64,000 nt of DNA from an uncultured Gemmatimonadota bacterium (GTDB lineage: Bacteria > Gemmatimonadota > Gemmatimonadetes > Gemmatimonadales > Gemmatimonadaceae). The notes beneath the pieces were generated by a model that worked only from the letters and a program-made list of their open reading frames with translations, ran no database searches and was not told the origin of the DNA. This document shows positions 30,375-31,537 of the stretch, piece after piece (positions within the stretch are counted from its first letter, which is position 1; every line of letters begins with the position of its first letter). The translations under genes and the position numbers were made by a program. The stretch covers positions 124,001 to 188,000 of the forward strand of contig CAIRYG010000003.1 in NCBI GenBank assembly GCA_903882745.1. Reading direction: 5' to 3'.

Positions 30375-30403
30375 TTGACTTTGTTTTCAGAGCCTGTCAT
30401 TAT
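30375..30403 (+). promoter_or_regulatory. sigma70-like promoter upstream of riboswitch leader
   Basis: TTGACT (30375-30380), 17-bp spacer, CATTAT (30398-30403). Confidence 0.65.
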
Positions 30404-30420
30404 TACCGCACAATTGAAGC

Positions 30421-30471
30421 CCGTGGTCATTTGCCGCCTATTGCAGCCACGCTAAAGAAATGCTAAAAACG
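30421..30471 (+). ncRNA. SAM-II riboswitch aptamer
   Basis: CGTGG-tcATTTGccGccTATTGCAg-CCACG-cTAAAgAAATGCTAAAAA; P1 CGTGG/CCACG and conserved ATTTG, TTGCA, TAAAgAAatGCTAAAAA segments match the SAM-II consensus from memory. Confidence 0.85.
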
Positions 30472-30475
30472 CGAC

Positions 30476-30540
30476 CGCCTGGTGGCCCCTATGCCCCCGG
30501 GCATTTTTGTATCCGGCACTCTCGCGGATACCACCAGGCG
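30476..30540 (+). ncRNA. perfect three-way-junction RNA structure in panB leader
   Basis: P1 CGCCTGGTGG/CCACCAGGCG (10 bp), P2 ATGCC/GGCAT, P3 TATCCG/CGGATA. Confidence 0.65.
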
Positions 30541-30568
30541 ATCTAGTTCCACTCTCGATGCGTCTACG

Positions 30569-30601
30569 CGGCCGTTCTCCCCCCAGGAGAATGGCCGTTT
30601 T
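30569..30601 (+). terminator. intrinsic terminator/attenuator between riboswitch and panB
   Basis: cggccgttctcc-cccca-ggagaatggccg followed by TTTT; 12-bp stem with one G-U. Confidence 0.75.
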
Positions 30602-30631
30602 GCGTAAGACCCTTTGCCTGACGAACCGCCG

Positions 30632-31537
30632 ATGACCGCAACCACCGCCAACTGCTCCACCCGCTCCGCAACCAAGAAGGTCACCGTCAACACGCTCGCC
30701 GCCCTCAAGGCGCGCGACGAAAAGGCGGTGTTCGTCACCGCCTATGACTACCCGACGGCCACCTTCGCTGACCGCGCAGGGGTCGACCTGCTCCTGGTCG
30801 GCGACTCGGCCGCCATGACAGTCCTGGGCCACGCGAACACCCTCTCGATCACGATGACCGAGATGTTGGTCTTCGCCCGTGCGGTGGCGCGCGGTGCGCA
30901 GCGCGCCTTTGTCGTCGGCGACCTCCCCTTCCTCTCGTACCAAGTCAACAACGACGACGCGGTGCGTAACGCCGGTGCTTTCATCGCCGCCGGGTGCGAT
31001 GCGGTGAAGCTCGAAGGTGGGGTGCGCGTCGCCGACCGCGTGCGCGCGATCACCGACGCGGGAATCGCCGTCATGGGACACCTTGGTCTCACTCCACAGT
31101 CGATCGGCCAGCAAGGCGGGTACCGCGTGCAAGGCAAGACGCTCGCCGCCACGCAGCGTGTACTCGACGATGCGCTCGCCCTGCAGGACGCCGGCGCCTT
31201 CGCCATCCTGTTCGAAGCGCTGCCGCCAGAGAGCGCTGCCTACATCCGCGAGCGCCTCGACATCATCTGCTACGGCATCGGCGCAGGCCCGCACCTCGAC
31301 GGCCAGCTCGTCATCTCGCACGACATCCTCGGCAACTTCGTCGGCGATATCGCACCGAAGTTCGTGAGCCGCTACGCGAACCTCGACCAGGTGGTCGAGG
31401 ATGCGTTCCGCCGTTATGCGACCGACGTGCGCGCGCAGCGATTCCCTGCCCCGAATCACTGGTACAGCATCGACGCGAGCGAAGCCGCCGCGCTCACACA
31501 GTTGTCACGCGAGCCCTTCGCTCGTAAGACGGCCTGA
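30632..31537 (+). CDS. panB: 3-methyl-2-oxobutanoate hydroxymethyltransferase
   Basis: FVTAYDYPTATFADRAGVDLLLVGDSAAMTVLGHANTLSITMTEM...AVKLEGG...GHLGLTPQSI. Confidence 0.95.
   Translation: MTATTANCSTRSATKKVTVNTLAALKARDEKAVFVTAYDYPTATFADRAGVDLLLVGDSAAMTVLGHANTLSITMTEMLVFARAVARGAQRAFVVGDLPFLSYQVNNDDAVRNAGAFIAAGCDAVKLEGGVRVADRVRAITDAGIAVMGHLGLTPQSIGQQGGYRVQGKTLAATQRVLDDALALQDAGAFAILFEALPPESAAYIRERLDIICYGIGAGPHLDGQLVISHDILGNFVGDIAPKFVSRYANLDQVVEDAFRRYATDVRAQRFPAPNHWYSIDASEAAALTQLSREPFARKTA

What the first reader, a model, noticed from the sequence alone, without database searches (positions are those of the whole stretch)
30375..30632. SAM-II riboswitch controlling panB-moaD-moeB-thrC
A promoter (TTGACT-N17-CATTAT) is followed by a near-consensus SAM-II aptamer and an intrinsic terminator before panB. 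SAM-II elements are known mainly upstream of methionine/SAM genes such as metA/metX/metC and usually act close to the start codon. Here the aptamer is ~160 nt upstream of the first gene and paired with a terminator, so both regulon and expression platform look atypical.
Basis: partly seen in the sequence, partly recalled or inferred. Interest (0 to 1): 0.85.

Follow-up and report, generated by a model that had tools for sequence, protein, structure and literature searches.

The report
SAM riboswitch on PanB-like homoserine operon
A genuine SAM-II riboswitch sits in front of a 'panB' gene that probably does not make vitamin B5 but makes homoserine from pyruvate and a one-carbon unit, replacing the missing standard enzyme; that route was known only as an engineered pathway and is predicted here, not yet tested.

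Summary
A promoter, a SAM-II aptamer (RF00521, 34.9 bits, E 2.3e-6, just under the 36-bit cut-off) and a terminator precede panB-moaD-moeB-thrC. SAM-II is widespread in Gemmatimonadota (206/301 genomes), and 28 of 31 assessable loci of this panB type carry it. The terminator is ordinary: 48/53 family sites have one, and SAM-II with terminators is published. What is unusual is the regulon. This PanB ('type A') is a separate clade: catalytic residues are kept, but pocket residues 212 and 214 are changed in all 30 sequences. The complete own genome lacks panC and homoserine dehydrogenase. Across 150 relatives, type A is mostly found where homoserine dehydrogenase is missing (26/33), and those genomes keep homoserine kinase (24/26, against 7/35 without type A). 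Elsewhere the operon reads SAM-II, aminotransferase, PanB, ThrB, ThrC, MoaD, MoeB. Best reading: PanB-A makes 4-hydroxy-2-oxobutanoate from pyruvate and methylene-THF, which is aminated to homoserine for methionine and threonine, under SAM control. This copies the synthetic 'homoserine cycle'; I found no report of it in nature. No biochemistry exists. Seven type-A genomes also keep the dehydrogenase, and the own genome lacks the operon-type aminotransferase.

The parts
30375..30403 (+). sigma-70-type promoter TTGACT-N17-CATTAT with TG before the -10
   Evidence: TTGACA-like -35 conserved upstream of the aptamer in the genus orthologues
30413..30487 (+). SAM-II (SAM_alpha, RF00521) aptamer, full-length model match
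   Evidence: 34.9 bits, E 2.3e-6; own-genome search
30422..30426 (+). P1 5' strand CGUGG, pairing with CCACG at 30447-30451
   Evidence: alignment; invariant in 7 orthologues
30433..30438 (+). loop segment GCCGCC: 5' strand of the P2 pseudoknot when SAM is bound, proposed antiterminator strand when it is not
   Evidence: the switching itself is inferred
30462..30467 (+). conserved GCUAAA, 3' strand of P2, followed by GCG at 30471-30473
30481..30486 (+). GGUGGC, complementary to GCCGCC (one G-U pair), in the same register as GGCGGC of the orthologues
30476..30540 (+). extended hairpin region (10-bp stem 30476-30485 with 30531-30540), replacing the first terminator of the orthologues; contains a terminator-like hairpin at 30491-30504 plus U run
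30569..30601 (+). second, strong intrinsic terminator (stem 30569-30597, UUUU 30598-30601)
   Evidence: a counterpart in all 7 orthologues
30632..31537 (+). panB-like gene, 'type A' PanB: predicted 4-hydroxy-2-oxobutanoate hydroxymethyltransferase
   Evidence: co-occurrence
31577..31849 (+). MoaD/ThiS-like sulfur carrier protein ending in GG
31857..33050 (+). MoeB/MoeZ-like activating enzyme with rhodanese domain
   Evidence: start by inspection
33053..34321 (+). second threonine-synthase-like gene (ThrC2), distinct from ThrC1 next to ThrB elsewhere in the genome

Best explanation
A SAM-II riboswitch controls, by SAM-dependent transcription termination, an operon that supplies homoserine and sulfur for methionine synthesis. 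At high SAM the aptamer closes (P1 plus P2 pseudoknot), its loop GCCGCC is occupied, the terminators form and transcription stops. At low SAM, GCCGCC pairs with GGUGGC in the 5' part of the first hairpin and transcription reads through. The first gene, annotated panB, encodes an enzyme that transfers hydroxymethyl from 5,10-methylene-THF to pyruvate, giving 4-hydroxy-2-oxobutanoate. An aminotransferase converts this to homoserine, replacing the lost homoserine dehydrogenase. Homoserine is phosphorylated by ThrB. ThrC1 makes threonine, while ThrC2 with the thiocarboxylated MoaD (charged by MoeB-rhodanese) may make homocysteine. Shown: the aptamer, terminators and their conservation, the operon structures, the pocket changes, and the absence of panC and homoserine dehydrogenase. 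Inferred: SAM binding, the switching, the PanB-A substrate and the ThrC2 reaction.
For: Riboswitch; 144/150 family and 206/301 phylum genomes; 7/7 genus panB orthologues; second copy on metF-metH. Platform: terminator in 48/53 sites against 18% of shuffles. The loop-to-terminator complement co-varies between site classes: GCCGCC with GGCGGC, GCCGCG with CGCGGC, GGAGGC with GCCTCC, CGAGGC with GCCTCG; mean -11.5 kcal/mol native, -9.2 shuffled, -8.3 swapped between classes. PanB-A: own genome has no panC and no PF00742 homoserine dehydrogenase but has a stand-alone aspartate kinase. The thrA-thrB-thrC locus of congener G046 has lost thrA in the own genome. Type A versus dehydrogenase: 7/33 against 82/117, p 6e-7; within-genus permutation p 0.01. 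ThrB kept in 24/26 dehydrogenase-less genomes with type A against 7/35 without, p 1e-8. Operons SAM-II-aminotransferase-PanB-ThrB/ThrC-MoaD-MoeB in several genera, and SAM-II-MetY-MetX-PanB in G032. Pocket positions 212 and 214 changed in 30/30 with all catalytic residues kept; these positions govern nucleophile scope in E. coli KphMT (PMC7610986). Clade support 0.998.
Against: Seven type-A genomes of 150 also keep homoserine dehydrogenase, and the incomplete G152 does too. The own genome lacks the operon-type aminotransferase; its best match is 35% identical, so another aminotransferase would have to serve. Three well-assembled congeners (G019, G085, G122) lack both routes yet keep ThrB and ThrC1. 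TIGR00222 (panB) scores the protein well above its cut-off (281 against 207.6 bits). The window aptamer is 1.1 bits under the Rfam cut-off, and its own loop complement alone is not better than shuffles (22% as good). P2 pairing did not beat swapped controls. Most genomes are MAGs of unequal completeness. No experiment exists.
Confidence: 0.62

Rival explanations
1. PanB-A is an ordinary ketopantoate hydroxymethyltransferase for vitamin B5, and SAM-II regulates it to share methylene-THF between pantothenate and methionine synthesis.
For: TIGR00222 match above cut-off and conserved catalytic residues; 24/33 type-A genomes do have panC.
Against: The own genome and seven other dehydrogenase-less type-A genomes have no panC by this search. 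Genomes with panC carry a separate type-B PanB next to it. Type A sits with an aminotransferase, ThrB, ThrC, MetX or MetY, not with panC. Pocket residues are changed in 30/30.
Confidence: 0.2
2. PanB-A hydroxymethylates some other 2-oxo acid for a product unrelated to homoserine; the thr/met neighbours are a regulon but not a single pathway.
For: Pocket changes show altered specificity but do not name the substrate. Some genomes keep homoserine dehydrogenase as well.
Against: In five genomes the aminotransferase, PanB, ThrB and ThrC lie in one operon, and type A tracks loss of homoserine dehydrogenase with retention of ThrB.
Confidence: 0.1
3. The riboswitch exists for moaD-moeB-thrC2 (sulfur incorporation) and panB is a passenger.
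For: In homoserine-dehydrogenase-positive G046 the SAM-II operon holds moeB-thrC2 without panB; in G067 the moeB-thrC2 pair is also found without panB.
Against: In several genera panB is the first or only operon gene behind SAM-II (G001, G059, G017, G045), and it appears mainly where the dehydrogenase is lost.
Confidence: 0.06
4. The aptamer is a degenerate or chance match with no function.
For: Score just below the Rfam cut-off.
Against: Conserved core, promoter and terminators in all seven genus orthologues, and paralogues and orthologues above cut-off across the phylum.
Confidence: 0.02

Closest known systems
SAM-II riboswitch (SAM_alpha, RF00521), e.g. A. tumefaciens metA, S. meliloti metA/metZ
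   Same: P1, loop, GCUAAA core, promoter a few nt before P1, terminator platform (PMC1273637, PMC2258182, PMC9373788)
   Different: Host phylum Gemmatimonadota and a panB-moaD-moeB-thrC regulon; no paper pairing SAM-II with Gemmatimonadetes or Gemmatimonas was found in the library searched
Ketopantoate hydroxymethyltransferase PanB (TIGR00222; PDB 1M3U, 1OY0, 1O66)
   Same: Fold family and catalytic residues D45, S46, D84, K112, E114, H136, E181
   Different: Pocket I/V212 to L, V214 to I, I/V200 to Y, L213 to V; methionine/threonine operon context; panC absent from the own genome
Synthetic homoserine cycle in E. coli (pyruvate + formaldehyde to 4-hydroxy-2-oxobutanoate to homoserine to threonine; PMC8879981, PMC8224422)
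   Same: Same predicted intermediates and the same following enzymes (aminotransferase, ThrB, ThrC)
   Different: Engineered with a promiscuous aldolase (RhmA) and free formaldehyde; here predicted natural, PanB-like, methylene-THF dependent and SAM regulated
Protein-thiocarboxylate methionine synthesis of Wolinella (cited in PMC5764234) and CysO/CysM/MoeZ of mycobacteria (own knowledge)
   Same: GG-ending sulfur carrier plus activating enzyme next to a PLP enzyme
   Different: The PLP partner is a second threonine-synthase-like protein rather than MetY or CysM; no separate metalloprotease gene was identified among the operon genes

Membership tests
SAM-II riboswitch RF00521 | Covariance score at or above the gathering cut-off (36 bits) | tested here: inconclusive
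   34.9 bits, E 2.3e-6 for the window; of 14 relatives' loci scanned 6 score 36.6-60.6, while the genus panB orthologues do not reach the cut-off either
SAM-II riboswitch RF00521 | P1 stem, AUUU loop, UUGC and GCUAAA core | tested here: met
   full-length alignment with no broken pair in P1, invariant core in 7 orthologues
SAM-II riboswitch RF00521 | P2 pseudoknot between loop and 3' strand | tested here: inconclusive
   a 3-bp complement of varying type in 41/50 sites, but no better than swapped controls
SAM-II riboswitch RF00521 | Association with methionine/SAM genes | tested here: met
   metF-metH copy in the same genome, MetX/MetY and hom copies in relatives
SAM-II riboswitch RF00521 | Selective SAM binding and SAM-dependent control | not testable with these tools
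   Needs in-line probing and a termination assay
PanB, ketopantoate hydroxymethyltransferase | Family score and catalytic residues | tested here: met
   TIGR00222 281 bits against cut-off 207.55; catalytic residues conserved 30/30
PanB, ketopantoate hydroxymethyltransferase | Substrate pocket residues I/V212 and V214 | tested here: not met
   L212 and I214 in 30/30 type-A sequences; V212/V214 in 9/9 type B
PanB, ketopantoate hydroxymethyltransferase | Pantothenate synthetase PanC in the same genome | tested here: not met
   No TIGR00018 match in the complete own genome
4-hydroxy-2-oxobutanoate route to homoserine | Homoserine dehydrogenase absent while homoserine-using enzymes remain | tested here: met
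   No PF00742 match; HSDH half absent by protein search; ThrB and ThrC1 present
4-hydroxy-2-oxobutanoate route to homoserine | Partner aminotransferase | tested here: inconclusive
   In the operon in several genera and in 5 of 7 type-A congeners, absent from 11/11 type-A-less congeners, but no close homologue in the own genome
4-hydroxy-2-oxobutanoate route to homoserine | Enzyme activity on pyruvate | not testable with these tools
   Needs an enzyme assay
Thiocarboxylate-forming sulfur carrier | C-terminal GG and a MoeB-type activating enzyme | tested here: met
   36/36 MoaD copies end in GG; MoeB-rhodanese adjacent
Threonine synthase | Same protein as the ThrB-linked ThrC | tested here: not met
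   ThrC2 is 33% identical to ThrC1, with 62 fixed differences over 14 and 20 sequences

The most novel reading that the evidence does not exclude
A natural, SAM-riboswitch-controlled pathway makes homoserine from pyruvate and methylene-THF through a PanB homologue plus an aminotransferase, in place of the aspartate route's homoserine dehydrogenase. A ThrC-like enzyme with a sulfur carrier then converts O-phosphohomoserine to homocysteine.
Probability: 0.55. Interest if true: 0.9.

Novelty: new variant of a known kind. Interest (0 to 1): 0.78.

Why it matters
If true, an intermediate called non-native in the synthetic-biology literature (PMC8879981) is part of natural metabolism, and a core branch point of amino-acid synthesis has a second, one-carbon-dependent entry. 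Gemmatimonadota genomes that look auxotrophic for methionine and threonine would be prototrophic, and many genes annotated panB would be misnamed. Methylotrophy engineers would gain a naturally evolved enzyme. The riboswitch supplies the functional clue: SAM control points to methionine, not vitamin B5.

Tried and rejected
The default Rfam scan missed the aptamer. The pan RNA motif (PMC2864571), known before panB genes, was not reported here by Rfam. SAM-II long-loop (RF01726) scored lower, 27.5 against a cut-off of 44. 'Terminator is atypical' was rejected on literature and family data. The S46-A47-A48 change of type A was rejected as a specificity mark because M. tuberculosis PanB has it too. 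P2 covariation by duplex energy was not significant. TIGR01392 (MetX) was uninformative as a presence call because no genome, controls included, passes its cut-off. The genome-collection scan for relatives returned mostly canonical PanB and a third clade outside Gemmatimonadota. Literature searches for a natural 4-hydroxy-2-oxobutanoate route to homoserine found only engineered ones; most subscription papers are not held.

Full report
OBSERVATION. The promoter TTGACT-N17-CATTAT (30375-30403) is found once, with 0.2 expected in shuffles. The Rfam scan at curated thresholds lists only a tRNA, but the permissive scan gives RF00521 (SAM_alpha/SAM-II) at 30413-30487 over the full model length, 34.9 bits against a cut-off of 36, E 2.3e-6. 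The same genome holds a second SAM-II before metF-metH. In the bacterial family 144 of 150 genomes have the element, 124 with a match over the cut-off; in the phylum 206 of 301, in 79 of 121 genera. The library held no paper combining SAM-II with Gemmatimonadetes or Gemmatimonas.

PANB LEADERS. All seven close panB orthologues of the genus, the window included, carry the promoter, an almost identical aptamer and two hairpins, the second (and in the relatives also the first) followed by a U run. Across the family 28 of 31 assessable loci of this panB type have the SAM-II core upstream on the same strand (counted). The exceptions are one short contig and two second copies.

EXPRESSION PLATFORM. 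Of 53 distinct SAM-II sites with 170 nt downstream, 48 have a terminator-like hairpin, against 18% of shuffled sequences. Terminators are also usual in proteobacterial SAM-II (PMC1273637, PMC2258182), and S. meliloti metZ is predicted to work that way (PMC9373788). So the platform is not atypical. A specific switch is suggested by the aptamer loop being complementary to the 5' part of the terminator, with the pair changing between site classes: GCCGCC/GGCGGC, GCCGCG/CGCGGC, GGAGGC/GCCTCC, CGAGGC/GCCTCG. Mean duplex energy is -11.5 kcal/mol native, -9.2 shuffled and -8.3 when partners are swapped between classes. Some site classes do not fit. In the window the pair is GCCGCC (30433-30438) with GGUGGC (30481-30486), one G-U pair in the orthologues' register. 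On its own the window is not significant. SAM-bound P2 and this antiterminator would exclude each other. This is inferred.

THE REGULON. Fetching 36 loci and reading them with the window's proteins as probes showed recurring operons behind SAM-II. G058: aminotransferase-PanB-ThrB-MoaD-MoeB-ThrC. G021, G069 and G109 (and G098, whose contig starts inside the operon): aminotransferase-PanB-ThrC-ThrB-MoaD-MoeB. G052: aminotransferase-PanB-ThrB-MoaD-MoeB. G057, G092: aminotransferase-PanB-MoaD-MoeB-ThrC. G093: PanB-ThrC-ThrB-MoaD-MoeB. G032: MetY-MetX-PanB. The genus of the window: PanB-MoaD-MoeB-ThrC. An aminotransferase and a hydroxymethyltransferase directly before homoserine kinase and threonine synthase is the order expected for pyruvate to 4-hydroxy-2-oxobutanoate to homoserine to phosphohomoserine to threonine.

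GENOME-WIDE TESTS. The window's genome (100% complete, 14 contigs) has this PanB, no PanC and no homoserine dehydrogenase (the same search rang in all 14 control genomes). A protein search with a congener's aspartokinase-homoserine dehydrogenase finds only a stand-alone kinase. In that congener (G046) thrA-thrB-thrC are adjacent; in the own genome thrB-thrC remain without thrA. Over 150 genomes the PanB of the window's type (type A) and homoserine dehydrogenase avoid each other (7/33 against 82/117, p 6e-7). Permuting within genera, which controls part of the relatedness, gives p 0.01. Among dehydrogenase-less genomes, ThrB is kept in 24/26 with type A but 7/35 without (p 1e-8). Of 88 ThrB genomes, 81 have one or other source of homoserine. 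Within the genus the operon-type aminotransferase (48-50% identity) occurs in five of seven type-A genomes and in none of eleven others.

THE ENZYME. Type A forms one clade (support 0.998). It keeps the residues I regard as catalytic (E. coli D45, S46, D84, K112, E114, H136, E181; their roles are from own knowledge) but has L at 212 and I at 214 in 30/30 sequences, Y at 200 and V at 213 in 97%. The panC-linked type B of the same family has canonical V, V, I, L at 212, 214, 200 and 213. Positions 202, 212 and 214 are those altered to change nucleophile scope in E. coli KphMT (PMC7610986). Bulkier side chains at 212 and 214 fit a smaller nucleophile such as pyruvate. This is inference.

THE REST OF THE OPERON. 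The genus has two threonine-synthase-like genes: ThrC1 beside ThrB, and ThrC2 in the SAM-II operon. They are 33% identical with 62 fixed differences. G046, which keeps homoserine dehydrogenase, has SAM-II before moeB-thrC2 with no panB, so moaD-moeB-thrC2 looks like the constant, SAM-regulated part and panB the part added where the dehydrogenase is gone. All 36 MoaD copies end in GG. A homocysteine synthase using O-phosphohomoserine and a thiocarboxylated carrier is my reading of ThrC2; I give it about 0.4 on its own.

LITERATURE. The same chemistry was built in E. coli as the synthetic homoserine cycle, where 4-hydroxy-2-oxobutanoate is called non-native (PMC8879981, PMC8224422). Price et al. 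(PMC5764234) treat homoserine dehydrogenase as the source of homoserine. I found no report of a natural PanB-based route, within a library that lacks most subscription journals.

LIMITS. Type A and homoserine dehydrogenase co-occur in seven of 150 genomes and in G152. The own genome has no close homologue of the operon aminotransferase. Three congeners lack both routes. Many genomes are MAGs. Type-A PanB passes the panB family cut-off. Nothing here measures an activity or SAM binding.

VERDICT. Riboswitch real (about 0.95 for SAM-II membership by sequence, about 0.9 for transcriptional control). Platform ordinary. Regulon novel. The homoserine role of PanB-A is the best-supported explanation at about 0.62. 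The novel-case probability (0.55) is for the homoserine route; the added ThrC2 clause is less certain.

Noticed in passing
L124, L128-L130, L133, L134, L139, L145, L147, L150, L152, L156, L168, L171, L176, L177, L179, L180, L182, L184, L185, L187, L189, L195, L197: A separate PanB clade in anaerobes (Spirochaetes, Bipolaricaulota, Clostridia, Desulfobacterota, Atribacteria, Synergistetes) mostly shares L212/I214 and Y or L200 with type A and carries SGQLGG. In the few loci inspected, neighbours look like MttB-type methyltransferases or an amino-acid dehydrogenase; possibly another non-pantothenate PanB.
   Followed up: partly
G019, G085, G122 (L230, L231, L232): Well-assembled congeners that have neither homoserine dehydrogenase nor type-A PanB but keep ThrB-ThrC1; the source of homoserine is unexplained.
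   Followed up: partly
L002 (own genome C2:120659-120733): Second SAM-II of the genome, before metF-metH. The terminator scan found no intrinsic terminator there, though the loop complement GCCTCG is present; perhaps a different platform.
   Followed up: partly
L086 in panB orientation, about 3613-3653 (-) and 3913-3952 (+): Two SAM-II cores in divergent orientation about 260 nt apart, one facing panB, the other facing the opposite genes.
   Followed up: no
L237, L238, L239 compared with window 25005-30335: In congeners the operon-type aminotransferase lies beside homologues of window genes (M20 peptidase, DUF411-like protein, and in some a lipoprotein); in the window that place is followed by the SAM-II-panB operon and the aminotransferase is missing, suggesting a local rearrangement.
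   Followed up: partly
L087, L088: Second copies of type-A PanB in G091 and G077 without SAM-II or thr/met neighbours.
   Followed up: no
window 30568-30572 and counterparts in L034-L039: The second terminator's 5' arm carries another copy of the anti-loop sequence (GGCGGC in relatives, up to 9 nt complementary to the aptamer in G128), so tandem terminators may share one antiterminator strand.
   Followed up: partly
window 29603-29675 (-): tRNA gene (anticodon GTT by reading, Asn) on the opposite strand upstream of the operon.
   Followed up: no
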